From: Aspidiotus rigidus
Taxonomy: Eukaryota; Arthropoda; Insecta; Hemiptera; Diaspididae
Assembly: GCA_035079385.1 (NCBI GenBank)
Contig: JAVHKY010000054.1
Span: 17,650,001-17,714,000, forward strand
Length of the DNA stretch: 64,000 nucleotides
Direction: 5' to 3'
The translations under genes and the position numbers were made by a program. Below the pieces are notes generated by a model. The model was given only the letters and a program-made list of their open reading frames with translations, was not told the origin of the DNA and made no database searches. Shown piece by piece: positions 9,866 through 38,417 of this stretch (positions are counted from its first letter, which is position 1; every line of letters starts with the position of its first letter).

Positions 9866-12800
9866 ATGACTTCTAATACTAGATCTAATTTATTTAACCC
9901 AGCTAAAACTACTACGAATAATAACCTAAATAAAATCAATAAGACAATAGAAGATGATAAAAATAAAATTAAGGTTAAATATTTAAATATGGATAGAAAA
10001 AAGGCCCAACAGTTGGAAATTTTAAAAGACTGTAAAAATGAGTTAATAATTCTGGCAGAACCCAACTACAAAAATGAAAAACTTCTTGGCCTAAGAACTG
10101 ATATTTACTCAGCAATCACAATGGGTGATATAGCAATTTGTTACAAAAATCGCATCAACTTGTTTGAAATTCAAAAGAACCAATCTACCATAATTATAAA
10201 AATAGAGGAAGTAGTAATCATTGCAATATATTGGTCGCCTAATGAATTAAATGAAATTATAGAAAAGAGAACTAGAGACTTACAGGAATACATAATACTA
10301 GACCTGAAAAATGAAAAAATTATTTTGATAGGAGATTTCAATACCAGATCAGTTATTTATGAGAAACTAAACGGCATAAGTTACAATAAAAGAAGAGCCC
10401 AAGCCTTTGAAGAATTCTTAATGACAAGTAATCTAACAGTTAGAAATCCATACAATTTTAAAACATTTGAAAATAAAAACGGATCTAGCGTAATTGATCT
10501 GATAATCACCAATGAAAGGATTAAAAATCAGGTTCAAAACATTAAAATTAAAAATGAAAGTCTTTCGTACCATAAATCAATAAACTTTGAAATTACAGAT
10601 ATTTGCAATTTTGAACATGAAAAAAACAAAACATGGGCTGTTAATTATGAAAAGTTTGAAAGGATAATTGAAGTAACAGATTTTGACGAAATAGTGGAAA
10701 AAATTGAAAACAGTATAGACATAAAAGAGCTAGACAACCAATTAATAGAATTCTCTGAAATAATTAAAAGTAAGCGAAAAGAATGTCTAGTTGAGATAAT
10801 AGAAAGGAAAAATGAGACATGGTGGAATGATAGATTAGAAACCCAGAAAAAACTAATTAAAAAGCTAACTAAACTTAAATACAAATATAAAAGAGCCAAA
10901 AAAAACATGTACCTAGAGAGTCTAATAGAATTAATGAAAATTTTGAAATCACAGTATACGCAGGAAATAATAGAGAATAAAAATAAGATATGGAAGAATC
11001 TTATAACCGAGAGCTCAGTTTGGGGGAAACCGTACAAAATTATAATGGAGAAATATAAGAAATTTGAATTCCCTCCCATCAAGCTTGGTAATAAAATTAT
11101 CACTGAAGAAAAAGAAAAGTACAAAGAAATTTTTCTAAATATTTTCCCAAACATAAATGATCCCCTCAAAGAATATGAGAATGAACAAGGAAATAACATA
11201 GAAATTGACGAGCTCCTAATAAAAAATATAATAAAAAAACTAAACAATAGGAAGGCTAATGGCCATGATGATATCTCCAATAAAATGCTCAAAATAATTA
11301 ACAAACAGTCACCAGAAATCTTCAAAACAATTTTTCAGAAACTTTTAAGCATAAACTATTTCCCAGAAACGTGGAAACTAGGTAAAATAAAACTCTTGAA
11401 TAAACCTAATAAGAATCCTGCTGAAATAAACTCATATAGACCACTAACCTTACTGCCCACCCTTGGAAAAGTTTATGAGAAAATAATAAAATATTATCTT
11501 AATCAAGAAATTGAAAAACTTAGCATTTTTCATGAACAACAATATGGATTTAGAGAAGGGCGATCCACAGAAACAGCCTTGATTGAATTAACTAAAACGC
11601 TGGACCAATTTAGAAAAATATTTAAACATGTAATTTTAGTCAGTTTTGATATTACAGGGGCTTTCAACTGGGTCAAATGGTCAAGATTACTAGAAACAAT
11701 GGAGAAAAAGGAGATTAATAGTCAATTAATACAAATTATTCAGAGCTACTTTGAAAACAGAAAAATATGTTTCTTTGACAAAGATAATAACCTAAAGTTA
11801 GAACATGCTTTATCCTCGGGAGTACCACAAGGCTCAGCCTTATCGCCAACATTGTTTAATATTGCAATGACTGAAGTACATGAAGCAGTAAAGGAAACAA
11901 AAAAATTCAAACTCTTGAGCTATGCCGATGACCTGCTGATAATAGCGGGAATAAATAAAATGACTGACTCTCAATTAATAAATGATAAGATAGAAATGAT
12001 AAAACTTAAACTGGAATACTTAGGCCTAACACTCAATCCGAATAAAACACAGATGCTTTTCCTATCTCGGAGACATAAAAAATACGAATTTCGAAAAAGA
12101 ATGGAAGGAAAAATAAAGTTGGGGCAGGAGAAAATAATATTCCATACAGAAATGAAATATCTAGGAATAATCATCGACCAAAACCTAAACTTTAATAAAC
12201 ACGTAGAATACATTACAAACAAATTAAGAAAATATTATAATAAAATTCGGGCTTTATATGGTAACACTTTTGGTATGGACACATATAAAAGAGAAATATT
12301 GTACAATGCACTTTTTCGCTCAATAATAGAATATGGCTCCCTTGCTTATTTTGAGAAACTTAGGAATACTGAGATTAAGAAACTAAAATCACTCCAAAGG
12401 ACAGTATTAATAGGAATAATTTCAGCATACAGAACAGTATCTCATACAGCCTCACACGTTATAGCTGGAATAACCCCAATTGATTTGCAATTAAGCCAAA
12501 CTAACAAAATAAAAACATTAAAAATAAAATTCAAAGAAAATAAAATAACGAAAAAAGAAATGGTAGAAAGCATAAAAACAATAAGATTAGATACAATTAA
12601 AAATTGGCAGGAGCAATATGAAAAAGAAACGACAGGTAGGAGAACGGCTAAATTGATTCCAGACATAGGGATAAGACTTGAAAACAAGAAATTGAAATCA
12701 AATTATTTTTTAACACAGTATTTGATGGGACATGGGAATTTTGCAACGTACCTCAAAAATTTCAATATTATAAATGATAGTCAATGCAGGGAATGCTTAA

Positions 12801-12976
12801 ATTCTGATGATGATCCGGATCACACCTTTATAAAATGCAAAAATTTTGATCGTATCAGGGGGGATGCTAAAATAACTACAGAGGAATTGGGACAGTGCCT
12901 GCAGAACGGGGAATGCCACCAAAAATTGGATGGATATATAAGAAAGATATTAAAAACCAAAAAAGAAATCAAATAG
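9866..12976 (+). CDS. Non-LTR retrotransposon ORF2: endonuclease and reverse transcriptase
   Basis: An uninterrupted 1036-aa protein. The N-terminal third is an APE-like endonuclease: AEPN near residue 64, GDFN at 156-159, SVIDLIIT near 210, and SYH in place of the usual SDH. The middle is a reverse transcriptase: SYRPLTLLPTLGK, then FDITGAFN (catalytic D595), GVPQGSALSP (652-661) and YADD (686-689). The end is a zinc finger, C974-x2-C977-x8-H986-x4-C991. Domain order fits the R1/LOA/Jockey/I group. Codon use is very A-rich and differs from the flanks. The start is the first Met of the open frame. No ORF1 lies upstream, where a PLE scrap begins within 40 bp, so the copy is probably 5'-truncated. 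All visible catalytic motifs are present, so it is likely young. Confidence 0.93.
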   Translation: MTSNTRSNLFNPAKTTTNNNLNKINKTIEDDKNKIKVKYLNMDRKKAQQLEILKDCKNELIILAEPNYKNEKLLGLRTDIYSAITMGDIAICYKNRINLFEIQKNQSTIIIKIEEVVIIAIYWSPNELNEIIEKRTRDLQEYIILDLKNEKIILIGDFNTRSVIYEKLNGISYNKRRAQAFEEFLMTSNLTVRNPYNFKTFENKNGSSVIDLIITNERIKNQVQNIKIKNESLSYHKSINFEITDICNFEHEKNKTWAVNYEKFERIIEVTDFDEIVEKIENSIDIKELDNQLIEFSEIIKSKRKECLVEIIERKNETWWNDRLETQKKLIKKLTKLKYKYKRAKKNMYLESLIELMKILKSQYTQEIIENKNKIWKNLITESSVWGKPYKIIMEKYKKFEFPPIKLGNKIITEEKEKYKEIFLNIFPNINDPLKEYENEQGNNIEIDELLIKNIIKKLNNRKANGHDDISNKMLKIINKQSPEIFKTIFQKLLSINYFPETWKLGKIKLLNKPNKNPAEINSYRPLTLLPTLGKVYEKIIKYYLNQEIEKLSIFHEQQYGFREGRSTETALIELTKTLDQFRKIFKHVILVSFDITGAFNWVKWSRLLETMEKKEINSQLIQIIQSYFENRKICFFDKDNNLKLEHALSSGVPQGSALSPTLFNIAMTEVHEAVKETKKFKLLSYADDLLIIAGINKMTDSQLINDKIEMIKLKLEYLGLTLNPNKTQMLFLSRRHKKYEFRKRMEGKIKLGQEKIIFHTEMKYLGIIIDQNLNFNKHVEYITNKLRKYYNKIRALYGNTFGMDTYKREILYNALFRSIIEYGSLAYFEKLRNTEIKKLKSLQRTVLIGIISAYRTVSHTASHVIAGITPIDLQLSQTNKIKTLKIKFKENKITKKEMVESIKTIRLDTIKNWQEQYEKETTGRRTAKLIPDIGIRLENKKLKSNYFLTQYLMGHGNFATYLKNFNIINDSQCRECLNSDDDPDHTFIKCKNFDRIRGDAKITTEELGQCLQNGECHQKLDGYIRKILKTKKEIK

Positions 12977-13818: not shown

Positions 13819-15007
13819 TTTTCCCTAATACATATTCCCTAACGACAAATTCCCCAACCGACAAATTCCCTAATGAAATTTTCCCTGAAACAATTGACCC
13901 TAACGACAAATTGCCAAAAAGACATTTTCCCGAAAGTAAATTTCACTACAGAATTTAATACGTCATTTTCCCTAAAAATATTTTCAGCAAACCATATTAA
14001 TGAAATGAAAAATTTAATTGTTTCATGAAATAGTTACATTTGCCGAGATAGAACGTAGGTATTCAAGTCGAGGGCGCGTGTTGTATTCAGCTGCTATGCT
14101 TTCCAACCGGTTTTGTAGTTCAATCCATTTAGCAGTTGGTGCAGCCTTAACTTTCTTGCCCATAGAAAGCTCAACTCTACATTTCTTCGAGTTGCAAAAA
14201 CGATTATTCTTTGTGTTACTGGCTGGTCCTCCTCTTCCTGTTGTTCTCCTTCTTCATCATCATCGTCGTCACATGCCTGAGGAGGAGGTCCGGAATCGTA
14301 GAGAACAAACTGTTCTCCCAACAATGTTTTTTGGTATCTCGCTGGCAATTCTCCAAGGTCTGACAGTCTTATTGGATTACCAGGAAGCTCCTTACGCCGT
14401 ATTCTTTGTAGTGATCGAACAAGTGCAGGCTGGGTCGGCATCTGACTCAGTACCTCCTCCTCTACACCTTGCAACTCATTACGAATCAGCTGTGACGGAG
14501 GTTGCGCTGGATTCTCTGCTGCTTTGCGTTGTATAGACCTTGTCAACTGTCGGGCAACATTCTCGTCTACGTTTGGCGGATGGTCATGTCTCGATTCATC
14601 AGGACCTTTGTACACCATCATTGGCTGGCCGCTTGTTGGATCTGTAGTTACGGCACGGGCTTTGCACTCCTTGCGCTTCGCTAATCTACATACCCAGTAT
14701 GTACGTCCTCCTTTTGTCAGCGCTTTCTGGTAAACGTACCCATCCAGGGTCATCTGCTTTCCATCGAACTGTGGTGGCATTTTGCTGCACTACTGACAAG
14801 TACTCAGCGAACTGCCGACGTCTTCACTGATTTTGCAATTGCTATGCAAATGGATATTATCACAGTAGAGAAAACGCGTTAGGAAATTTGTCGTTAGCGA
14901 TAATTGTTTTAGCGAAAATTCCATTAGGTAATTTCTTGTTTAGGGAATTTGTCGTTGGGGAAATTTTTTTTAGGGAATGTTTATTTAGGGAGAATGTATT
15001 AGAGAAA
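13819..15007 (-). mobile_element. MULE-like DNA transposon (deletion derivative) inside the PLE
   Basis: The unit has imperfect terminal inverted repeats (TTTTCCCTAATAC on the left, TTTCTCTAATAC as the complement on the right). Many subterminal copies of TTCCCTAACGACAAATTCCC-like motifs occur in opposite orientation at the two ends. It encloses a minus-strand FLYWCH-domain ORF. Insect MULE/Phantom-type transposons combine FLYWCH with a downstream transposase; the transposase is missing here. Flanking sequence rejoins the PLE zinc-finger frame. No clean 9-bp target duplication is left. Confidence 0.75.
14094..14780 (-). CDS. FLYWCH zinc-finger protein, truncated MULE transposase N-terminus
   Basis: A 228-aa frame. 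Residues 12-67 form a FLYWCH-type zinc finger: Tyr28-Trp29, Cys31, Cys39 and the His65-x-His67 pair. A conserved helical region follows (TRSIQRKAAENP, then RSLQRIRRKELPGNP). An acidic stretch of Asp/Glu comes next, and then RIIVFATRRNVEL, the sequence that normally leads into the MULE transposase catalytic core. Here the frame diverges and ends after about 30 residues, so the catalytic part is deleted. The protein may bind the subterminal repeats around it, but it cannot transpose DNA. It could also be a repressor; that is inference. Confidence 0.75.
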   Translation of the reverse strand: MPPQFDGKQMTLDGYVYQKALTKGGRTYWVCRLAKRKECKARAVTTDPTSGQPMMVYKGPDESRHDHPPNVDENVARQLTRSIQRKAAENPAQPPSQLIRNELQGVEEEVLSQMPTQPALVRSLQRIRRKELPGNPIRLSDLGELPARYQKTLLGEQFVLYDSGPPPQACDDDDDEEGEQQEEEDQPVTQRIIVFATRRNVELSFLWARKLRLHQLLNGLNYKTGWKA

Positions 15008-16989: not shown

Positions 16990-18090
16990 AAATGGGAATG
17001 TTGATAGACCAAAAATATATTTTTAGTATTTCGTTTATCGATTTGGTCAGTTCTTATGTAAACACGTCCACCGATGAGGTAGAGAACATTAGATTGAGAA
17101 AAATAGTTGAAAAATTCTCCAGTCGCTGGAACGACTCTGAAAATAGTAGAGAAGTGAGAAAATCCACTTTTTCACCCTGGAGGACTGTGAGTTTTGGTAT
17201 TTCATTCATCAATTCGTTCAATTCCTAAGTAAAAATGTATCCCAAATCTGAAAAAAATAGTCAAAAAATTCTCCAGCCGCTGTAATGGTCTGGAAAGGAT
17301 AAATAATTGAGAACAACCAATTTTTTACCCTGGAGGACCGTGAGTTTTGGTATTGCGTTCATCAATTAGGTCAATTCTTATGTAAACACATTCGCCGAAT
17401 CCGAAAAAAATGGTCAAAAAATTCTCCAGCTGCTGGAACCTTCTGGAAAGGACAAATAATCGAGAACATCTAATTTTTTACCCTGGGGGACCGCGATTTT
17501 TGGTATTTTGTTCATCAATTAGGTAAATTCTTAAGTAAACATGTCCGTCGAGTTTGAAAAAAATAGTCAACAAATTCTCCAGTCGCTGGAACAGTCTGGA
17601 AATAGCAGAAAATTGAGAAAGTTCACTTTTTCAACCTGGAGAACTGCGATTTTTCATAATTCATTCATCAATTGAGGCAAATCTTATGTGAATACATCCG
17701 CCGAGTTGGGAAAAAATAATCAAAAAATTCTCCAGTTTCTGGGATGCCCTGGAAATAGTAAAAACTCTAGGTAATCCACTTTTCCAACATGTAAAACCGT
17801 GATTTTTCATATTCTGTTTATCAACAGGGTCAATTCTTATGTAAATACATCCGCCGAGTTGGAAAAAAATAGTCAATAAATTCTCCAGTCGCTGGAACGA
17901 TCTAGAAATAGTACCAAATCCAGAAAATCAACTATTTCAACATGGAAAGCCCTGATTTTTGGTATGTTCTTCATCAATTAGGTCAAATCTCATGTTCATA
18001 GGTCTTACAAGTTGGAAAAAAAATAGTCAATAAATTCTCCAGTCGCTAGGACGCTCAGGAAATGGTAAAAAACCGATACACACCCACCCC
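16990..18090. repeat. 153-bp tandem satellite (about seven copies)
   Basis: The block ATTCTCCAG recurs at 17114, 17268, 17420, 17574, 17727, 17880 and 18034, a period of 152-154 bp. Each unit also contains a poly-A-rich stretch before the block and a phrase like TTTGGTATTTCATTCATCAATT. Copies differ by substitutions but hardly by length. Confidence 0.92.
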
Positions 18091-20544: not shown

Positions 20545-20690
20545 TCGAAGATCTGATGACGTCACGATTTGATGACGTCATAATCTGATGACGTCACACG
20601 ATCTAATGAAGTTACGATCTGGTGACGTCACGATGAAGATCTGTGACGTCACGATCATCGTGCCATCACTATCTGATGACGTCACAGAGC
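20545..20690. repeat. Array of six perfect TGACGTCA palindromes
   Basis: TGACGTCA occurs at 20557, 20573, 20589, 20623, 20644 and 20677, with a decayed copy near 20606. Each lies in a repeat unit like GATCTGATGACGTCAC of about 16-33 bp spacing. TGACGTCA is the cyclic-AMP response element, the consensus site for CREB/ATF-type bZIP dimers. Confidence 0.9.
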
Positions 20691-21499: not shown

Positions 21500-21504
21500 C
21501 AGCT

Positions 21505-21716
21505 TGTCGCGGAGCGAATAGAATCTGTGTACAAGAGTGTAACAGGGCCACTCGCACACAATATGTGCAGTCGCCGATGTAAATACCATTATTTAATGTG
21601 AAATAGAAGCAGAAGATTAAGAATAGAAATCATCTGTTATAGAATTTATTTCATTTCATGCGGAATACAGTCGGACCGGCGTGAACCGCTCGTGTTAAAC
21701 AGTATTCACCGCTACA
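21505..21716 (+). repeat. 5' LTR (212 bp)
   Basis: Begins TGTCGCGGAGCG and ends CACCGCTACA. It is identical to the 3' copy over the whole 212 bp by direct reading. Confidence 0.95.
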
Positions 21717-21733
21717 TGGCGCCCGAATAGATA
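21717..21733 (+). promoter_or_regulatory. Primer binding site, Lys-tRNA-like
   Basis: TGGCGCCCGAATAG abuts the 5' LTR with no gap. TGGCGCCCGAA is the complement of the 3' end of lysine tRNA used by many retroelements. It fixes the element orientation as plus. Confidence 0.8.
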
Positions 21734-21879
21734 GTAGGAAAACCCCACCTTTCATAGCTAGATACTAGATAGTTCATAGTAGTCTGAACCAGTTCATATC
21801 AACAGTTCACCCATAGAAATCCTGCCTGTAGAGCGTAGTAGGTACCTCATTTATATTACAGGTTAAAAATCGCTCTTTT

Positions 21880-22016
21880 ATAGCTCGTATTCTTTTTTTC
21901 TTTTCTCTTTTTCTTTCTCTCTCTTTCTTTCGTTTTTCTACTGATTAGTGACGTGCGAGTAAATCGCTTCTGTTCTATTCAACGTGAAATCAACACTAAT
22001 GTTCTTCTCTTTCCAG
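21880..22016 (+). promoter_or_regulatory. Likely splice acceptor before the bZIP-like ORF
   Basis: A pyrimidine-rich stretch (about 21890-21940) and then TTCTTCTCTTTCCAG, ending at 22016, lie 7 bp before the ATG. This is a good acceptor. It suggests the ORF is translated from a spliced element RNA whose donor lies in the leader. I could not pick a donor with confidence. TGACGTGC, one base short of a CRE core, is at about 21949. Confidence 0.55.
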
Positions 22017-22023
22017 GCTTACC

Positions 22024-22461
22024 ATGGACCGTTCGCACTTGGAGAATCTTTTGAACTACCTCGCGGCTCCACACTACACGCACAATTATGAAAATGAGCG
22101 AGAGAGCATGAAAGATGCCCACAACAATTACCTTACAATGCAGATCCTACAAACAGCGGACTACTCTCACATAGAAGAGAAATATTTGGAGGAAGAGGAT
22201 CGCCGCATACAATCGAGTCGTTATTTATCTCTGGAAGAAAGAGCAAAAAGACGCAGTAAAAAAAAACGGGGACAAAACAGCCGAAAAATGTACTGTACAC
22301 GTCGCCGTGCAAAGCAGAAGCTGGCCAAAATCCAATTAAAAATTGACAGCTTACGGGAAGAGGTTGAACACATGGAAACCACAAGAGACAATCTTCAACT
22401 CCAACGCTTCAACTGCGATAAATTTGAGCGATACAACTTAGAAGAGGCTGATTCTGAATAA
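22024..22461 (+). CDS. bZIP-like protein carried by an LTR retroelement
   Basis: A 145-aa protein with start context ACCATGG. Residues 73-99 are strongly basic and contain N85-x7-R93, the hallmark of a bZIP DNA-contact region. I103 follows exactly ten residues after R93. Then L110, M117 and L124 continue at seven-residue steps, with I107 and V114 in the matching a positions. This is the bZIP register N-x7-R-x9-L-x6-L-x6-L, with Ile and Met in two zipper places. The usual Ala pair in the basic region is Lys-Met here, so DNA preference may differ. The N-terminal 70 residues are acidic and unrecognised. It could act as a nuclear regulator of the element or of host genes; that is inference. A gag-like RNA-binding role is an alternative. 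Confidence 0.78.
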   Translation: MDRSHLENLLNYLAAPHYTHNYENERESMKDAHNNYLTMQILQTADYSHIEEKYLEEEDRRIQSSRYLSLEERAKRRSKKKRGQNSRKMYCTRRRAKQKLAKIQLKIDSLREEVEHMETTRDNLQLQRFNCDKFERYNLEEADSE

Positions 22462-23083
22462 TTATTATTAGAAATTTTATTTTGTTACATTTTAACTAGA
22501 CAATTTTTAACCCCATCTTTTTATCCTATTTATTTATTCACTTGTTTTTATCATCACTTTTTTTTTCTCCTCTTTGTTTTCTTTCTCTCTTTTCTTAACT
22601 ACCTACCTATTTATCAATTAATATCTCTCTTTCTCATTACTTTCTCTACCTTTTCCTTTAATATGTTCCACCTGATTTTGAAGTTCCTCATGATTGTAAT
22701 GATAATAATTTTTACACCTTGTTATTAATTTATTTTGTTATAATTGTTAAAGTTTTTCTCACTTGGTTATCTTAGAAGCTCTGCTCTGTTATTGTATTTT
22801 ATTTATATTACCCTGTTAGTTACTATTACTCTCCCCCTATTTCAGTTTTACCCCTCTTTAGCCTAAGTTTCATTAATTAGCTTAATTTTTCTATATTGTT
22901 CGGAGTACCCTTTTTTTTTTACCCCTCTTCTTCTTTCTTTTCCCCCTTTTCCTTTTTTATTTTATTTTATTTGTTTATTTATTTTTATTTTTGTTTTTGT
23001 TTCTCTATTATTTTTTCTTCTTTCTTTCTTTGTTATTGTCGTTTTATTTTGTTTTCATTTTTATTTCTTTTTGTTTATTTGTT

Positions 23084-23128
<45 letters not shown>

Positions 23129-23137
23129 CGCCCGGAG
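22462..23137. other. Pyrimidine-rich 3' region of the bZIP retroelement
   Basis: About 630 bp of extremely T-rich, purine-poor plus strand ends in a run of some 40 T (about 23087-23126) and then GCCGCCCGGAG before the 3' LTR. Open frames here are Phe-rich artefacts. A purine-rich tract, expected at this place to prime plus-strand synthesis, is not seen. Confidence 0.8.
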
Positions 23138-23349
23138 TGTCGCGGAGCGAATAGAATCTGTGTACAAGAGTGTAACAGGGCCACTCGCACACAATATGTG
23201 CAGTCGCCGATGTAAATACCATTATTTAATGTGAAATAGAAGCAGAAGATTAAGAATAGAAATCATCTGTTATAGAATTTATTTCATTTCATGCGGAATA
23301 CAGTCGGACCGGCGTGAACCGCTCGTGTTAAACAGTATTCACCGCTACA
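23138..23349 (+). repeat. 3' LTR (212 bp)
   Basis: Identical to 21505-21716. It is followed by the target duplication CAGCT. Confidence 0.95.
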
Positions 23350-23354
23350 CAGCT

Positions 23355-27929: not shown

Positions 27930-30900
27930 TGTAGCGTCACAGCTTTCCAAGGGGGGTAGTGCCCCTTGAAAGATGCTGAAAGTGTAGCCTAACCTATGCC
28001 CGAACAAGTCGAACCAAAAAGAAAAGAAAACAGGGATGCCACTCTGTCTCATTAGATACATATAAAAGGTGTGGTCTGACAGAGAAGACCAAAGAAGAAT
28101 TTTGCCCAGATTTTCTTGAAAGCTGGGGGAGACAAAGACCCACAATTTAGAAGCTAAGCTACACTTGCTAGCTTTCGGCGCTTTAAGAGAGGGTTACGCC
28201 TACTTGTTCCCTCTCCGAGTGGAATTATCGGCATATTCCACCGACGATTAACTTACAGAATAATTGTGACTAATGAAGATTTCTTCTACTCGTAATATTA
28301 CCGTAGAGAGAAGACAGAACGTATCATGAAATAAAATGACACAGGTTGGAGTCACGGAATAAAAACTATAATTATGCCCGGGTTACGAGCGTGCAAGAAC
28401 AGACAATTGAAAAATCAAACGGATATATGCACCCGAAATACGGGTCAAAACTGATAATAATGGAAATGAAATAAATCGGTGAACGACAAACAATGCATGA
28501 ACTTAATTATCAGGAAATAATTAAATGAGATAACTCGTATTAATAGATACAGTTAATTATGATTAACTAAGATGTGTTTGTCCCAAAAAATCCCTTCGGG
28601 GTTGAATTTGGAACGAACCAAAAATGTGGAGAATGGAACATGTCCATATCAAAATAAATCGGAAATACTGAACAATTTTAGAGTAGGGAATAGGAGCGTG
28701 TCGGCGCTGCGCGACCATCGCCTCGAATATCCTCGTTGGCCTTACCTGGCCCAATCATGGAAAATTTCCAAAAGTAAAATGAGCATCAGCCCGTCTGGCA
28801 AGTCTCACTGGGCGAATGGGGTACGTATATAAAAATAAAATAATAAAAGAAGAGAATTAAAGTCAAGTTAACGTAAATCAATTTACGTCCCAGATTCGCG
28901 GGAGACAAAACCACCAGCGGGGTGCTACAAAAAATGTAGGTGAGCTCAGATAGGGCTCGGGGATACCGAAACTAGGTCGCGCGAGCCGCTAGCTCAACCC
29001 AAAATTTTTAAATGCGCTCATCGGCGCCCAAGTGTAATATTAAAAATATATTGTACGAGCTCACTCGCACGATTCAAACAGTAAAAAAGAAAACGAATTA
29101 AAGGGTAAACGTAATTTAGCGTTCAAAACTTGGGAGTCTGCTATATTCAAATAATATTTTACTCACCGTAAATAAACGGAGCACATGTAGCTCAGCTCGA
29201 AGACGCGCGCGTATCCGATGATCTGCAGCTGAAAAGAAATGTAACCTTTCCTCCAAATAATAATTTTTACATCTCAGGAAGAGGACCTTTTGGGATTCAA
29301 GTTGAACGGTATAGGAATTTTTACGAACATATTATATAATGAAGAGTGTGGCGCTGATGCATAATCATAGTATAATAAAAGCAAGGTAAACAAATGAAAA
29401 ATAAGAAACATGGAAAATAGAGGAATAATTATGAAAAGTAAAAGAGACGCCTAAGCGGCGACAAAACGCAAATATAAAAGGACGATATAAAGTAATAGCT
29501 AGTGACAGCAGTTGGTGGATCGATGTTGGAAACCGGGTGGAAACATCTCGGTGCAAAAGCTCCCGGAGAGGCATCCTGGCAAAATGGTACGAATGGCGAA
29601 ATCATTGAGGTGAGTTGTTATTTGATCGGCATTTGGGCAGCATTTGGGGGTCGGGATGGCCCCCGCATAAGTGAGCCTAGCCGCTCATGGTTGTGAAACA
29701 ATTTTTCCAGAACATCGATAAAGGCACAGAACTACTGCAATAATACTAGCGCAACTTTTCGCACTCGAATCAGACGATCGGCGAATGAAAATGATAAACT
29801 AGATATGTTTATACGAACACACGTTTACGAGCACAAGTTACTTGACGATATTAATTCTAGTTATCTGATCGCTTGTTACATCAAGCTAAAATTTTATGTG
29901 CGATTGAAATTCGAAATTTTAATTGTCGCGGTGCGGAATTTTCTCTTGTGACATGTACCGACACTTTAAAATCGAGACAGGCGCGACGAAAATAATAACC
30001 ACGAGCGAGACGCTTTGCAAGAACGTAACAATATAATATTGTTCGAGAACGATTTTCGAACACAAGCTGCGTAGACTTTTGGTCTCCGAATTTTCTGAGC
30101 AACTCTATCGACTAACGTCAGCATCATCTCTTGTCGACTCCTGTTCCGCAGACTTCCTACTTCGGCTGCTCCCATTCTCTTAGCAGCATCGAATCAAGAG
30201 TCGACAAGGAGTTATTGATTGGCTAGGCTTTACTTACTACAAGGGCCATCTTAGGTAGATCAGCCTATCACAATACTGGTAGTGATAGCAATACACATAC
30301 GCCCCCAATGTACAGAAACCCGCGAAAAAGCAACAGTCAGTTGACCCAAACATCAAGGGTGGCCGAAAGAGGAATTTGAATCCACACGTGTTTGGGACCA
30401 ACAGTGAGAAAAACTTTTATAAAGATACGCATGTAAGAACAGAGGATGACTTTTACGACTTCCTCTACTGTATGCATCCATCAGACCATCTCGGAGATGA
30501 ACTGCATAAAGTCAGTCCTGCACATCCCCTGCTGCGGACTCATTGACAATTTCCTAAGGTCCGGCGGTAACAGAGAGAATCTTTTTAAGAAATCGTAAAA
30601 TTAACTATTTGGAGAATTCAGTCGTAAAATAACTTGACACTCAACTGTATCTAAAATAGGGTTTAAATAATTGGTTTAACTAACTTCCTTTTCTTTTCTC
30701 AGAAATAAATAGAAAGATTCTCTGTGTTAGGTCCAGCCTCAAGGACAGTCATGCAGTATTGGTGTGCATGCGTACATTAATAAAAGATTTTAAAAGAGGG
30801 AGATTTAATTTAGAATCTAAAATAGGATTTAGACTGACTGTAGTCACAGATGTTTGAATAAACGGACTCGTCGCCTTCTCTTTCAATGGAATATATTATA

Positions 30901-31097
30901 CAAGGGTAGATGCGGTATATGCTGGCTATACCAGATTGCAATAGGCTGCACTATAATGCATCGAAAAAAAAAGTTTAATACGGAAAATATCGAGAAATAG
31001 TCGAGAAATAGTCGTCTAATAATATATATAGCAATTGAGACTTATTATGGGCATTTATATGCATTTTTGTCGTGCGTTCCAAAAATGTGACGCTACA
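27930..31097 (-). repeat. 3' LTR of the large element (3168 bp)
   Basis: Same length and same sequence wherever I compared it with 35250-38417, including identical small open frames. These duplicated frames (for example 28572-28832) are LTR sequence, not separate genes. Confidence 0.95.
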
Positions 31098-31569: not shown

Positions 31570-31710
31570 ATGAGAGTCATTTGTCGTACATTAGCCATTA
31601 CCTCCTGTCCCGATATTGGATCCCTCAAGAGATAGGCATTCTTCCCCACCCTTTGAACGACAATGAACTCCCCCTCTACAAAAACTCTTATTGCTGCTCA
31701 AGTTGGTTCC
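31570..31710 (-). pseudogene. Integrase C-terminal remnant
   Basis: The minus strand reads FVEGEFIVVQRVGKNAYLLR and DPISGQEVMANVRQM. This matches the end of gypsy-type integrases, where G-P/E-F-x-V ... VG.NAY.L+DP.TG ... VR precedes the pol stop. The frame continues to 31443. Nothing else of RT, RNase H or the integrase core was found, so an internal deletion joins gag to the last part of pol. Confidence 0.65.
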
Positions 31711-33632
31711 AAAGTTACAAGCATGTACTTTGCCAAACGATAAATGTGTGTCACCATAGTAATGGAGTGCTTGAACCAAAGCCAAGAAATCAGTTTTTTC
31801 ATAATATTCAATAATGTTGTAGTGACTATTAACACTCTTACAATATGGGAGTTGATCAGTGACAACTTCCAAAACTTGAACTCTTTTCTTCCAATGCTAT
31901 CGTCTTTAATGACACTGTGTCCTCGCTCCAAGTCTTTGGAAGTAGAAGTATGAAGATTGACCTGGTTACTATAGGGTCTGTCGACTTTTTTCTTATCACA
32001 GTAGAGATTTGCAAAATCTAAAAGTCTCTCTACTGGTTTCTGATATAAAGCAAAATGAGGTCTGCGCAGTTTCGCTCTAGTAAAATGTCGAGTAATTTTT
32101 CTATGCAAAACATCGTCGCTCCTACTTTTTAGTACAAGAATAGAGCTGGTCAATAGAATCCAAAGCCCTATTAGAAAGCTATAGATAGCTCCAAGAAGAC
32201 TCGCTAATTGTATCTTATACATTTTCATTTTACCTTCTCGCAAATAATATTCAGACAACTGCAGTTTGCAAAAATCTCTCTTCTGCGTAATCTTATCGCG
32301 TTCATTTGGTATGCTCACCTTCTTCCTGATCACCGGGCTCTTAATACCTGTCGATTCACGACAATGGGGATACGAAATACGGTCGAATGAAATACTGTCA
32401 TCCGTAAGAGAACCTGTGACAACTTCCTCACAAATGGGAATTGCGTCATCGGTAACTAGATTCTCGACTTCCGAGGTATCCGCTTCTCTCTCAATCAGGA
32501 CCTGAGGTGCAGTACTCGAATCATGACAAACGCGTTGCTCACTTCGCTGCCTTTCAGGTACCAATCCAGTCTGCTCTTTCATACTTTCTAGAGTCATCAG
32601 CATTTGATTTAAAATCAGCATGGTTGCATGCTCTCTCTCTTCTCGCAGTTTCCTCTCCCTTTCGATCTGCTCTTTACGCTGACGTTCATCCTCTTTGTAA
32701 CGACGCTCGCGTTCGGAAGTACGCTGACGATTTTCTTCCATCATTTTGAGCAAAGAATGAGCAACTTCGTTAAATGAATTGCCCCCTGAGTTTTCTATAT
32801 TAGACGTCACGGGTTTCCCTGACAACGAAGTGGAATCGTTCTTCTCGTCTGTAAATGGCAGAATGGGGTTTGGATTAGCAGGAATGTAAGGAGGATCCTT
32901 CTGATTCTGACTGACAGCTACGTTAATCACTTGGTCAGGGCTCCTATTTTCATTTTCAGTTTCCACAGATATTTGAAGCTTACCCTCCTCCTTGATATAG
33001 GGTGAAAGAAGAACATTTATTATCTCATTAATATGCACTCGATCTTCCTCTTCCTGTTCTTGTCGCTCTTGTTCCTGCTCAATATCCACCTGTTCTCGAG
33101 ACTTTTTCTCGCCCTCAAAGTGTATCAAGCGAAGGACTACTCGACTAAAATGGTCAAAATCAGAATATTCCACGCCCATGAGGATGGGTTCTAGATGAAG
33201 AGGGAGTTTGCCAATTAACGCCTTGAAAATTGACCATTCTGAAAATTTTACGTTCGTCAGAGTCGAAAGTTTACTGTACCAAGTATCGAGCTGGCTTTTC
33301 AATTCACCATAGTACTCACAATCTAAGCGTAGCTCCTCGAACTGTTCAAGAATCTCCGCTTGAATACCCTCATTCCAATAATAATTTAGGAATGCTTCTT
33401 CCCAACGAATTAACGAATCGTTCACAAAACTCAACTTTGAGTACCAATAAGGCTCTTTACTCCTCACAAAAGTTTTGAACAGTCGATTTTTCACACATTC
33501 GGGAATAGCAGAGCCTTGAATAGCTCCATTAAAATATTCAACGAATCGAACCGGCGGAATTTCGCCGTCATTTCGAAAGACAGGGCAGGTTTCAAGATCC
33601 CACGCCACGTCTCTAACTGATTTAACGCTCAT
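31698..33632 (-). CDS. Gag-like protein of the large LTR element
   Basis: A 644-aa open frame, the longest in the element. Residues about 25-175 resemble the retrotransposon gag capsid fold: EPYWYSKLSFVNDSLIRWEEAFLNYYW and then helical repeats ending LPLHLEPIL. A Gln/Glu-rich segment and a charged coiled coil (about 296-332, RERRYKEDERQRKEQIERER) follow. A hydrophobic stretch near residues 475-500 (LLGAIYSFLIGLWILL) could be a membrane helix, unusual for Gag. No CCHC knuckle is seen. The final 140 residues are unrecognised and overlap the integrase remnant in another frame, so they may be out-of-frame deletion-junction sequence. The start is the first Met after a 1.6-kb leader. Confidence 0.8.
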   Translation of the reverse strand: MSVKSVRDVAWDLETCPVFRNDGEIPPVRFVEYFNGAIQGSAIPECVKNRLFKTFVRSKEPYWYSKLSFVNDSLIRWEEAFLNYYWNEGIQAEILEQFEELRLDCEYYGELKSQLDTWYSKLSTLTNVKFSEWSIFKALIGKLPLHLEPILMGVEYSDFDHFSRVVLRLIHFEGEKKSREQVDIEQEQERQEQEEEDRVHINEIINVLLSPYIKEEGKLQISVETENENRSPDQVINVAVSQNQKDPPYIPANPNPILPFTDEKNDSTSLSGKPVTSNIENSGGNSFNEVAHSLLKMMEENRQRTSERERRYKEDERQRKEQIERERKLREEREHATMLILNQMLMTLESMKEQTGLVPERQRSEQRVCHDSSTAPQVLIEREADTSEVENLVTDDAIPICEEVVTGSLTDDSISFDRISYPHCRESTGIKSPVIRKKVSIPNERDKITQKRDFCKLQLSEYYLREGKMKMYKIQLASLLGAIYSFLIGLWILLTSSILVLKSRSDDVLHRKITRHFTRAKLRRPHFALYQKPVERLLDFANLYCDKKKVDRPYSNQVNLHTSTSKDLERGHSVIKDDSIGRKEFKFWKLSLINSHIVRVLIVTTTLLNIMKKLISWLWFKHSITMVTHIYRLAKYMLVTLEPT

Positions 33633-35249: not shown

Positions 35250-38200
35250 TGTAGCGTCACAGCTTTCCAAGGGGGGTAGTGCCCCTTGAAAGATGCTGAA
35301 AGTGTAGCCTAACCTATGCCCGAACAAGTCGAACCAAAAAGAAAAGAAAACAGGGATGCCACTCTGTCTCATTAGATACATATAAAAGGTGTGGTCTGAC
35401 AGAGAAGACCAAAGAAGAATTTTGCCCAGATTTTCTTGAAAGCTGGGGGAGACAAAGACCCACAATTTAGAAGCTAAGCTACACTTGCTAGCTTTCGGCG
35501 CTTTAAGAGAGGGTTACGCCTACTTGTTCCCTCTCCGAGTGGAATTATCGGCATATTCCACCGACGATTAACTTACAGAATAATTGTGACTAATGAAGAT
35601 TTCTTCTACTCGTAATATTACCGTAGAGAGAAGACAGAACGTATCATGAAATAAAATGACACAGGTTGGAGTCACGGAATAAAAACTATAATTATGCCCG
35701 GGTTACGAGCGTGCAAGAACAGACAATTGAAAAATCAAACGGATATATGCACCCGAAATACGGGTCAAAACTGATAATAATGGAAATGAAATAAATCGGT
35801 GAACGACAAACAATGCATGAACTTAATTATCAGGAAATAATTAAATGAGATAACTCGTATTAATAGATACAGTTAATTATGATTAACTAAGATGTGTTTG
35901 TCCCAAAAAATCCCTTCGGGGTTGAATTTGGAACGAACCAAAAATGTGGAGAATGGAACATGTCCATATCAAAATAAATCGGAAATACTGAACAATTTTA
36001 GAGTAGGGAATAGGAGCGTGTCGGCGCTGCGCGACCATCGCCTCGAATATCCTCGTTGGCCTTACCTGGCCCAATCATGGAAAATTTCCAAAAGTAAAAT
36101 GAGCATCAGCCCGTCTGGCAAGTCTCACTGGGCGAATGGGGTACGTATATAAAAATAAAATAATAAAAGAAGAGAATTAAAGTCAAGTTAACGTAAATCA
36201 ATTTACGTCCCAGATTCGCGGGAGACAAAACCACCAGCGGGGTGCTACAAAAAATGTAGGTGAGCTCAGATAGGGCTCGGGGATACCGAAACTAGGTCGC
36301 GCGAGCCGCTAGCTCAACCCAAAATTTTTAAATGCGCTCATCGGCGCCCAAGTGTAATATTAAAAATATATTGTACGAGCTCACTCGCACGATTCAAACA
36401 GTAAAAAAGAAAACGAATTAAAGGGTAAACGTAATTTAGCGTTCAAAACTTGGGAGTCTGCTATATTCAAATAATATTTTACTCACCGTAAATAAACGGA
36501 GCACATGTAGCTCAGCTCGAAGACGCGCGCGTATCCGATGATCTGCAGCTGAAAAGAAATGTAACCTTTCCTCCAAATAATAATTTTTACATCTCAGGAA
36601 GAGGACCTTTTGGGATTCAAGTTGAACGGTATAGGAATTTTTACGAACATATTATATAATGAAGAGTGTGGCGCTGATGCATAATCATAGTATAATAAAA
36701 GCAAGGTAAACAAATGAAAAATAAGAAACATGGAAAATAGAGGAATAATTATGAAAAGTAAAAGAGACGCCTAAGCGGCGACAAAACGCAAATATAAAAG
36801 GACGATATAAAGTAATAGCTAGTGACAGCAGTTGGTGGATCGATGTTGGAAACCGGGTGGAAACATCTCGGTGCAAAAGCTCCCGGAGAGGCATCCTGGC
36901 AAAATGGTACGAATGGCGAAATCATTGAGGTGAGTTGTTATTTGATCGGCATTTGGGCAGCATTTGGGGGTCGGGATGGCCCCCGCATAAGTGAGCCTAG
37001 CCGCTCATGGTTGTGAAACAATTTTTCCAGAACATCGATAAAGGCACAGAACTACTGCAATAATACTAGCGCAACTTTTCGCACTCGAATCAGACGATCG
37101 GCGAATGAAAATGATAAACTAGATATGTTTATACGAACACACGTTTACGAGCACAAGTTACTTGACGATATTAATTCTAGTTATCTGATCGCTTGTTACA
37201 TCAAGCTAAAATTTTATGTGCGATTGAAATTCGAAATTTTAATTGTCGCGGTGCGGAATTTTCTCTTGTGACATGTACCGACACTTTAAAATCGAGACAG
37301 GCGCGACGAAAATAATAACCACGAGCGAGACGCTTTGCAAGAACGTAACAATATAATATTGTTCGAGAACGATTTTCGAACACAAGCTGCGTAGACTTTT
37401 GGTCTCCGAATTTTCTGAGCAACTCTATCGACTAACGTCAGCATCATCTCTTGTCGACTCCTGTTCCGCAGACTTCCTACTTCGGCTGCTCCCATTCTCT
37501 TAGCAGCATCGAATCAAGAGTCGACAAGGAGTTATTGATTGGCTAGGCTTTACTTACTACAAGGGCCATCTTAGGTAGATCAGCCTATCACAATACTGGT
37601 AGTGATAGCAATACACATACGCCCCCAATGTACAGAAACCCGCGAAAAAGCAACAGTCAGTTGACCCAAACATCAAGGGTGGCCGAAAGAGGAATTTGAA
37701 TCCACACGTGTTTGGGACCAACAGTGAGAAAAACTTTTATAAAGATACGCATGTAAGAACAGAGGATGACTTTTACGACTTCCTCTACTGTATGCATCCA
37801 TCAGACCATCTCGGAGATGAACTGCATAAAGTCAGTCCTGCACATCCCCTGCTGCGGACTCATTGACAATTTCCTAAGGTCCGGCGGTAACAGAGAGAAT
37901 CTTTTTAAGAAATCGTAAAATTAACTATTTGGAGAATTCAGTCGTAAAATAACTTGACACTCAACTGTATCTAAAATAGGGTTTAAATAATTGGTTTAAC
38001 TAACTTCCTTTTCTTTTCTCAGAAATAAATAGAAAGATTCTCTGTGTTAGGTCCAGCCTCAAGGACAGTCATGCAGTATTGGTGTGCATGCGTACATTAA
38101 TAAAAGATTTTAAAAGAGGGAGATTTAATTTAGAATCTAAAATAGGATTTAGACTGACTGTAGTCACAGATGTTTGAATAAACGGACTCGTCGCCTTCTC

Positions 38201-38417
38201 TTTCAATGGAATATATTATACAAGGGTAGATGCGGTATATGCTGGCTATACCAGATTGCAATAGGCTGCACTATAATGCATCGAAAAAAAAAGTTTAATA
38301 CGGAAAATATCGAGAAATAGTCGAGAAATAGTCGTCTAATAATATATATAGCAATTGAGACTTATTATGGGCATTTATATGCATTTTTGTCGTGCGTTCC
38401 AAAAATGTGACGCTACA
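35250..38417 (-). repeat. 5' LTR of the large element (3168 bp)
   Basis: First in the minus-strand element orientation; same sequence as 27930-31097. Near its start on the minus strand is a TATAAA-like CATATAAATG. Confidence 0.95.

What the first reader, a model, noticed from the sequence alone, without database searches (positions are those of the whole stretch)
22024..22461. A bZIP transcription-factor-like gene inside a young LTR retroelement
The only ORF between two identical 212-bp LTRs shows N85-x7-R93-x9-I103-x6-L110-x6-M117-x6-L124, the exact spacing of a basic-leucine zipper, preceded by a Lys/Arg-rich stretch. I know of retroviruses that encode bZIP proteins (HTLV-1 HBZ) but not of a small nonautonomous insect LTR element whose sole product is one. 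It could drive transcription of its own or a helper element, or it could be a captured host gene.
Basis: partly seen in the sequence, partly recalled or inferred. Interest (0 to 1): 0.88.

Follow-up and report, generated by a model that had tools for sequence, protein, structure and literature searches.

The report
Retroelement accessory gene, not a bZIP
The small gene does not look like a DNA-binding bZIP factor but is a shared accessory gene of a family of virus-like jumping elements (BEL/Pao), left alone in this copy after the element lost its main genes; it may make a protein that handles the element's own RNA.

Summary
But no Pfam bZIP model matches it or 10 divergent relatives, the key Asn is kept in 4 of 11, and none of the 10 has the spacing.

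The host genome (unnamed, 441 Mb) shows what it is. Seven ~7-kb elements share these LTRs and carry this ORF ("ORF3"); the one examined fully is BEL/Pao, with ORF3 behind gag-pol. The window element lost gag-pol at a short sequence match. About nine diverged families (my grouping) keep ORF3; 11 of 16 divergent loci adjoin BEL gag-pol. Shared: a YxSLEER motif, an Arg-rich RRGKxSR core, a coiled-coil-like helix. A splice-acceptor-like site sits just before the accessory start in 6 of 8 families; one family shows purifying selection; three add a second small ORF.

Best reading: a spliced accessory regulator of the element's own RNA, working somewhat like Rev or Cer1 CERV (inferred). ORF3's frame is broken in six of the seven 7-kb copies, but open in the window copy and one other.

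The parts
21500..21504 (.). target-site duplication, left (CAGCT)
21505..21716 (+). 5' LTR, TG...CA
   Evidence: shared with seven ~7-kb elements
21717..21730 (+). primer-binding-site-like TGGCGCCCGAATAG (tRNA-Lys-like by recall)
   Evidence: same word in the parent and family 2, similar in family 5
21717..21981 (+). 5' leader kept from the parent; only weak splice-donor-like sites (21838, 21842, 21862)
21970..21981 (+). deletion junction: BLAST matches to both parent segments overlap by these 12 bases; gag-pol is lost here
22002..22016 (+). splice-acceptor-like pyrimidine tract ending CAG, 7 nt before the ATG
22024..22461 (+). ORF3, 145-aa accessory protein; Lys/Arg-rich core round the RG motif (residues 82-83), coiled-coil-like stretch about residues 97-124
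22462..23137 (+). T-rich 3' untranslated stretch ending GCCGCCCGGAG; no purine-rich tract before the LTR
23138..23349 (+). 3' LTR, identical to the 5' LTR
23350..23354 (.). target-site duplication, right (CAGCT)

Best explanation
The ORF is ORF3 of a BEL/Pao LTR retrotransposon family: a small, basic, helical accessory protein encoded behind gag-pol and, I infer, translated from a spliced subgenomic RNA (leader donor to the acceptor just before its ATG). The window copy is a deletion derivative: gag-pol was lost between short matching sequences, leaving LTR, leader, ORF3, 3' UTR and LTR. Shown: family membership, deletion, conservation across diverged families, acceptor-like sites, purifying selection in one family. 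Inferred: the protein binds the element's own RNA through its Arg-rich helix, oligomerises through the coiled coil, and helps unspliced genomic RNA out of the nucleus or into particles, as Rev does for HIV-1 and CERV does for Cer1. My odds: BEL accessory gene 0.95, spliced expression 0.8, RNA-level regulator 0.4-0.5.
For: Seven ~7-kb elements with the same LTRs carry the ORF; the one on C25 has DUF1759, DUF1758, RVT_1, Peptidase_A17, Integrase_H2C2 and DUF5641. Window 21505-21981 and 21970-23349 match the two ends of that element, leaving out gag-pol. Invariant Y67 E72 R73 R76 R82 G83 S86 over 11 sequences, 10 of them at 23-34% identity to the window. 11 of 16 divergent loci have BEL gag-pol adjoining; these 11 are six families by my grouping. 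Acceptor-like site within 10 nt of the first accessory ATG in 6 of 8 families, against 12 of 347 other ATGs; cut-off set after seeing several sites. Strong donor-like CAG|GTACGT in the family 5 leader, CCT|GTAAGT in family 2 U5. Family 5 dN/dS about 0.08-0.32 in six non-independent pairs of four copies. 12-16 Lys/Arg among about 26 residues round the RG motif in 11 of 11; best a/d heptad segment matched by 7.5% or less of its own shuffles in 10 of 11, an optimistic test because the segment was chosen as the best. Precedent for a product of a spliced message needed for genomic RNA export: CERV (PMC10309623: abstract, section 9 and passages).
Against: No expression data. No homologue at E<=1 in 5.8 billion proteins and no convincing PDB or Pfam match, so RNA binding rests on composition and layout only. 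The window family's own donor sites are weak (best 4.1; about 11% of 888 GT sites score 4 or more). I saw no clear Leu-rich export signal by eye. A repeated RNA hairpin was found in family 2's leader only, of three leaders scanned. Family 2 copies give no sign of purifying selection (1 synonymous and 4 non-synonymous changes). L031 fails the coiled-coil test. Six ~7-kb copies at five distinct sites carry a broken ORF3, which suggests it is not needed in cis.
Confidence: 0.5

Rival explanations
1. ORF3 is a DNA-binding transactivator that works like a bZIP though it is not one: a basic helix grips DNA, the coiled coil dimerises it, and an acidic, aromatic tail activates the element's LTR.
For: Basic stretch and coiled coil lie in one helix (residues 70-144) in the single-sequence model; four relatives (L026, L031, L035, L056) end in acidic tails with an aromatic motif such as DDWLTF; bZIP-like spacing in the window copy.
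Against: Key Asn in 4 of 11, basic core in 0 of 11; no bZIP profile match; no full CRE, AP-1, C/EBP, PAR or G-box word anywhere in the element, only one CRE half-site (TGACG) at 21949 in the leader.
Confidence: 0.18
2. ORF3 is a packaging or RNA-chaperone protein, or a suppressor of host small-RNA silencing, acting on RNA in the cytoplasm rather than in export.
For: Very basic and helical; fast-evolving compared with gag-pol (23-34% identity against 45-63% in gag-pol pieces of over 100 residues).
Against: Gag of the C25 element already has Cys-rich zinc-knuckle-like motifs (read by eye); no known suppressor was among the matches.
Confidence: 0.22
3. A host bZIP gene captured by the element (as retroviruses took jun, fos and maf; recalled).
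For: Spacing in the window copy; small non-autonomous element.
Against: The ~7-kb elements already carry the ORF; 11 of 16 divergent loci adjoin BEL gag-pol; no bZIP profile match. The direct search of the genome for bZIP genes did not complete, so host bZIPs were not compared.
Confidence: 0.03
4. Chance ORF or decaying remnant without function.
For: Frame broken in six of eight close copies; no homologue in protein collections.
Against: Conserved across diverged families; family 5 dN/dS about 0.08-0.32.
Confidence: 0.03

Closest known systems
BEL/Pao LTR retrotransposons (Belpaoviridae)
   Same: Gag-pol domain set in the parent, LTRs, 5-bp target duplication; the window copy is a deleted member
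   Different: Third ORFs known in this group are env-like (recalled); this one is small, basic, without a hydrophobic segment (by eye) and without a match. Roo encodes gag, pol and env in one ORF (PMC3087523, passages)
CERV of Cer1 (C. elegans LTR retrotransposon)
   Same: Product of a spliced mRNA, no obvious homologue outside nematodes, leucine-zipper-like stretch and a basic nuclear signal; needed for genomic RNA export (PMC10309623: abstract, section 9 and passages)
   Different: CERV is 517 aa with globular M and G domains and shares reading frame with gag in exons 1-3; ORF3 is 145 aa with its own start; different retroelement; no sequence comparison with CERV was made
HIV-1 Rev and similar Arg-rich retroviral regulators (recalled)
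   Same: Small, Arg-rich helical core plus oligomerising part, spliced message behind pol
   Different: No sequence similarity turned up, no recognised Leu-rich export signal, RNA target unknown
sORF1/sORF2 of the MDG1 group (412, Stalker2)
   Same: Small accessory ORFs of insect LTR elements under selection (PMC11952523, abstract and passages)
   Different: Those lie upstream of gag in a different group; sORF2 is a transmembrane, fusogen-like protein
HTLV-1 HBZ (bZIP protein of a retrovirus; recalled)
   Same: Retroelement-encoded basic region plus zipper-like stretch
   Different: HBZ is antisense and a bZIP protein; ORF3 is in sense and has no bZIP match

Membership tests
bZIP transcription factors | Match to Pfam bZIP_1, bZIP_2 or bZIP_Maf | tested here: not met
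   None for the window protein and none among the 25 of 26 families listed for the 11 members at E up to 10; GCN4 and CREB1 pieces match
bZIP transcription factors | Conserved Asn and Arg of the basic region (N-x7-R), N-x2-[AS]-A-x3-[RK] core | tested here: not met
   Asn in 4 of 11; core in 0 of 11; relaxed spacing in 1 of 11, the window copy
bZIP transcription factors | Leucine-zipper coiled coil continuous with the basic helix | tested here: inconclusive
   One helix 70-144 in a single-sequence model; heptad pattern in 10 of 11; no fold match in PDB
bZIP transcription factors | Sequence-specific DNA binding | not testable with these tools
   needs an assay
BEL/Pao element (the insertion and its parent) | Peptidase_A17/DUF1759/DUF5641 gag-pol in the parent | tested here: met
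   for the C25 element; the window copy itself has lost gag-pol
BEL/Pao element (the insertion and its parent) | LTRs TG..CA, primer site, short target duplication | tested here: met
   5-bp duplications seen at both ends of five insertions (window, C25, C29, C54, C5)
Rev/CERV-like export regulators (works like) | Expressed from a spliced message | tested here: inconclusive
   Acceptor-like sites in 6 of 8 families; donor strong in family 5, fair in family 2, weak in the window's family; no RNA data
Rev/CERV-like export regulators (works like) | Binds element RNA and is needed for its export | not testable with these tools
   needs CLIP, localisation and removal of ORF3
Rev (family membership) | Sequence or fold similarity to Rev | tested here: inconclusive
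   Rev is not among the PDB matches by sequence or fold, nor among Pfam matches; no direct comparison with Rev was made

The most novel reading that the evidence does not exclude
BEL/Pao elements of this genome carry a complex-retrovirus-style accessory region: a spliced ORF3 (with a second ORFX in at least three families, fused to ORF3 in one) that regulates the element's RNA, in one family perhaps through a row of five matching RNA hairpins in the leader. The present population has then split the job: gag-pol copies with a broken ORF3 and a gag-pol-less copy that keeps only ORF3, which would support each other in trans.
Probability: 0.2. Interest if true: 0.85.

Novelty: new variant of a known kind. 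Interest (0 to 1): 0.6.

Why it matters
Accessory genes that control retroelement RNA are known from complex retroviruses (recalled) and from Cer1 (PMC10309623). A conserved one in BEL/Pao would put a retrovirus-like regulatory layer in another, distant group and would make testable how envelope-less retrotransposons get intron-containing RNA out of the nucleus. It also corrects a tempting misreading: a correct bZIP spacing in one sequence that vanishes as soon as relatives are aligned.

Tried and rejected
bZIP identity: rejected on profiles, alignment and spacing. Retrotransposed spliced RNA as the origin of the short copy: rejected, since the junction (21970-21981) lies upstream of the acceptor-like AG (ends 22016) and shows matching sequence at both ends, which fits a template switch or deletion. 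Transmembrane or env-like ORF3: no hydrophobic segment by eye. Shared leader hairpin: present in family 2, absent in families 1 and 5. Leader folding: unusually stable in family 5 only (z -4.20; families 2 and 1: -0.04 and +1.07); the family 5 leader has long A and T runs that pair, so I give it little weight. Gag/ORF3 in-frame splice fusion through the best donor inside gag (L039 851): out of frame by hand count, dropped. 5' leaders of five further families (L026, L027, L036, L035, L031): the upstream stretches fetched showed no LTR match and no primer-site word, so these copies look truncated. Viral contigs: no relative. A further 11 weak matches were not fetched. PMC3212995 passages held nothing to the point.

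Full report
What is there. The ORF at 22024-22461 and the identical 212-bp LTRs are real, with TG..CA ends and a CAGCT duplication. Directly after the 5' LTR stands TGGCGCCCGAATAG, which I read from memory as a tRNA-Lys-type primer site. Identical LTRs mean a recent insertion; no finer date is possible.

The parent. I did not establish the species. The best protein match to the parent's integrase part is named as from a leafhopper, at 40% identity, which fits an arthropod but proves no more. An LTR search gave 25 matches (a lower bound by the tool's own note), 16 of them in eight pairs: the window pair 1.6 kb apart and seven pairs about 7 kb apart, on C54, C29, C5, C3, C25 and two on C52. The C25 element has one long gag-pol frame, read in two overlapping pieces, with DUF1759, DUF1758, RVT_1, Peptidase_A17, Integrase_H2C2 and DUF5641: a BEL/Pao element. 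About 150 bases after its stop comes an ORF identical in protein to the window's. I call it ORF3.

How the window copy arose. Window 21505-21981 matches the 5' end of the C25 element and 21970-23349 its 3' end, the two matches overlapping by 12 bases. Gag-pol was therefore lost between short matching sequences. It is the only short pair among the 25 LTR matches, so no amplified mini-family was seen.

State of ORF3 in close copies. Of eight copies (window plus seven), two have an open ORF3 (window and C25, identical proteins) and six have the frame interrupted inside the lysine-rich stretch. The six are identical over 460 bases except for one base in each of the C52 pair. In all six the last 449 codons of gag-pol are open; the rest of their gag-pol was not looked at. 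The C54, C29 and C5 copies each have their own 5-bp duplication; for C3 and C52 only the 3' flank was seen, different from the others and shared by the two C52 copies, which are probably one duplicated insertion. So an ORF3-broken form sits at five distinct sites: ORF3 is dispensable in cis, is supplied by other copies, or is still made at low level by slippage. I cannot tell which.

The family. A search with the window ORF gave 41 matches up to E=10, among them the close copies in split pieces; a second with the L027 member gave 34 up to E=0.01; the sets overlap. Of the 16 divergent loci kept from the first search, 11 have BEL gag-pol adjoining, and 5 (L030, L031, L033, L037, L038) do not within 1.5 kb. 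Five loci of the second search (one of them the place of L030) had no gag-pol match nearby either. I aligned 11 sequences (A1), leaving out near-identical copies (L023, L028, L032) and the broken L030, L033 and L034; L037 is incomplete at its N-terminus, L035 and L038 begin with letters that are probably not ORF3, and L031 is fused to ORFX. Invariant: Y67 E72 R73 R76 R82 G83 S86. The bZIP Asn column holds N in 4 of 11 and otherwise E, Q, A or K. In family 5, six pairwise comparisons of four copies give dN/dS of about 0.08 to 0.32; in family 2 (three copies) one pair is identical and the others have 1 synonymous and 4 non-synonymous changes, no sign of constraint; between families dS is mostly saturated. 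Grouping into about nine families is mine, by eye.

The protein. Twelve to 16 of about 26 residues round the RG motif are Lys or Arg in all 11, and a coiled-coil-like pattern follows in 10 of 11, on an optimistic test. The single-sequence model has mean pLDDT 82 and one helix from 70 to 144; Foldseek finds nothing in PDB at E up to 10 and three meaningless viral matches at E 4.4 or worse. A lone helix is what such models tend to give for such a sequence, so I count it lightly. Protein searches with the sequence and with A1 found nothing at E up to 1, though the same collection holds 89 relatives of the parent's integrase part at E up to 1e-10, including named arthropods; small unannotated ORFs would be missed there.

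Expression. In 6 of 8 families a pyrimidine-rich YAG ends within 10 nt of the first accessory ATG (L009, L024, L026, L027, L029, L035; not L036; L031 has a YAG 9 nt upstream but misses the pyrimidine cut-off), against 1437 of 26557 positions and 12 of 347 other ATGs. For L026, L035 and L031 the first accessory ATG is that of ORFX. I set the cut-off after seeing several of these sites, so the binomial values there (below 1e-6) are too good. Donor-like sites, scored with a matrix recalled from memory: family 5 leader CAG|GTACGT 10.2, family 2 U5 CCT|GTAAGT 7.2 (2.3% of 888 GT sites reach 7.0), the window element 4.1 at best, which is ordinary.

ORFX. In L026, L035 and L031 a second short frame (about 75 aa, MEF...GLPY.K.E...) precedes ORF3, overlapping its start in two and fused with it in L031. 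The L026 and L035 versions match no Pfam family.

Leader hairpins. The family 2 leader holds five copies of STEM-UAGC-NNNN-GUCU-STEM' with stems GUCAG/CUGAC, GAG/CUC, CAGG/CCUG, CGAG/CUCG and AAACGAG/CUCGUUU; none of 2000 Markov shuffles gave more than one (mean 0.002), with a pattern drawn up after seeing the fold. The stems differ but pair, a sign of a kept RNA structure. The leaders of families 1 and 5 have none. It is a candidate target for ORF3 in that family, no more.

Literature. I ran eight answered full-text searches of ten allowed. None of the listings I saw showed an ORF of this kind in BEL/Pao; that is a statement about those listings only. CERV of Cer1 is the closest working precedent (PMC10309623: abstract, section 9 and passages). 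Small accessory ORFs of insect LTR elements are described upstream of gag in the MDG1 group (PMC11952523: abstract and passages), and diverse ORF3s in bdelloid rotifers (PMC5408684: passages).

Verdict. Real, conserved and mis-named. What is new is an accessory gene family of BEL/Pao elements with the make-up of an RNA regulator; its function is inferred.

Noticed in passing
window 27930-31097 and 35250-38417, ORF 31698-33632 (-): A second young LTR element with identical LTRs of about 3.2 kb, TG..CA ends, and a 644-aa frame that looks gag-like by eye and has no Pfam match at E up to 0.01.
   Followed up: partly
window 20550-20690: Tandem repeat with unit GATCTGATGACGTCAC; six TGACGTCA words, the classic CRE site, lie here, about 0.8 kb upstream of the element and outside it. 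Probably coincidence.
   Followed up: no
L040:992-1220: Five hairpins with a fixed inner part and differing but pairing stems in the leader of family 2.
   Followed up: partly
L026:1283-1504, L035:1171-1404, L031: Second short accessory frame ORFX before ORF3, fused with it in L031; no Pfam match for the first two.
   Followed up: partly
window 23127-23137 and 3' LTRs of the seven 7-kb elements: The 3' LTR follows GCCGCCCGGAG (8 of 8 seen) after a long T-run (window), where a polypurine tract would be expected.
   Followed up: no
window 9866-12976: Open 1036-aa LINE frame with endonuclease and reverse transcriptase domains, followed by an AAT-rich stretch.
   Followed up: no
window 14094-14780 (-): 228-aa frame with a FLYWCH zinc finger.
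   Followed up: no
window 17095-18069: Satellite-like tandem array, period 153.
   Followed up: no
L042 (reverse strand) and L029: The family 5 copy on C4 has lost the middle of gag-pol but keeps identical LTRs, leader, ORF3 and the last part of pol: another ORF3-keeping deletion copy.
   Followed up: partly
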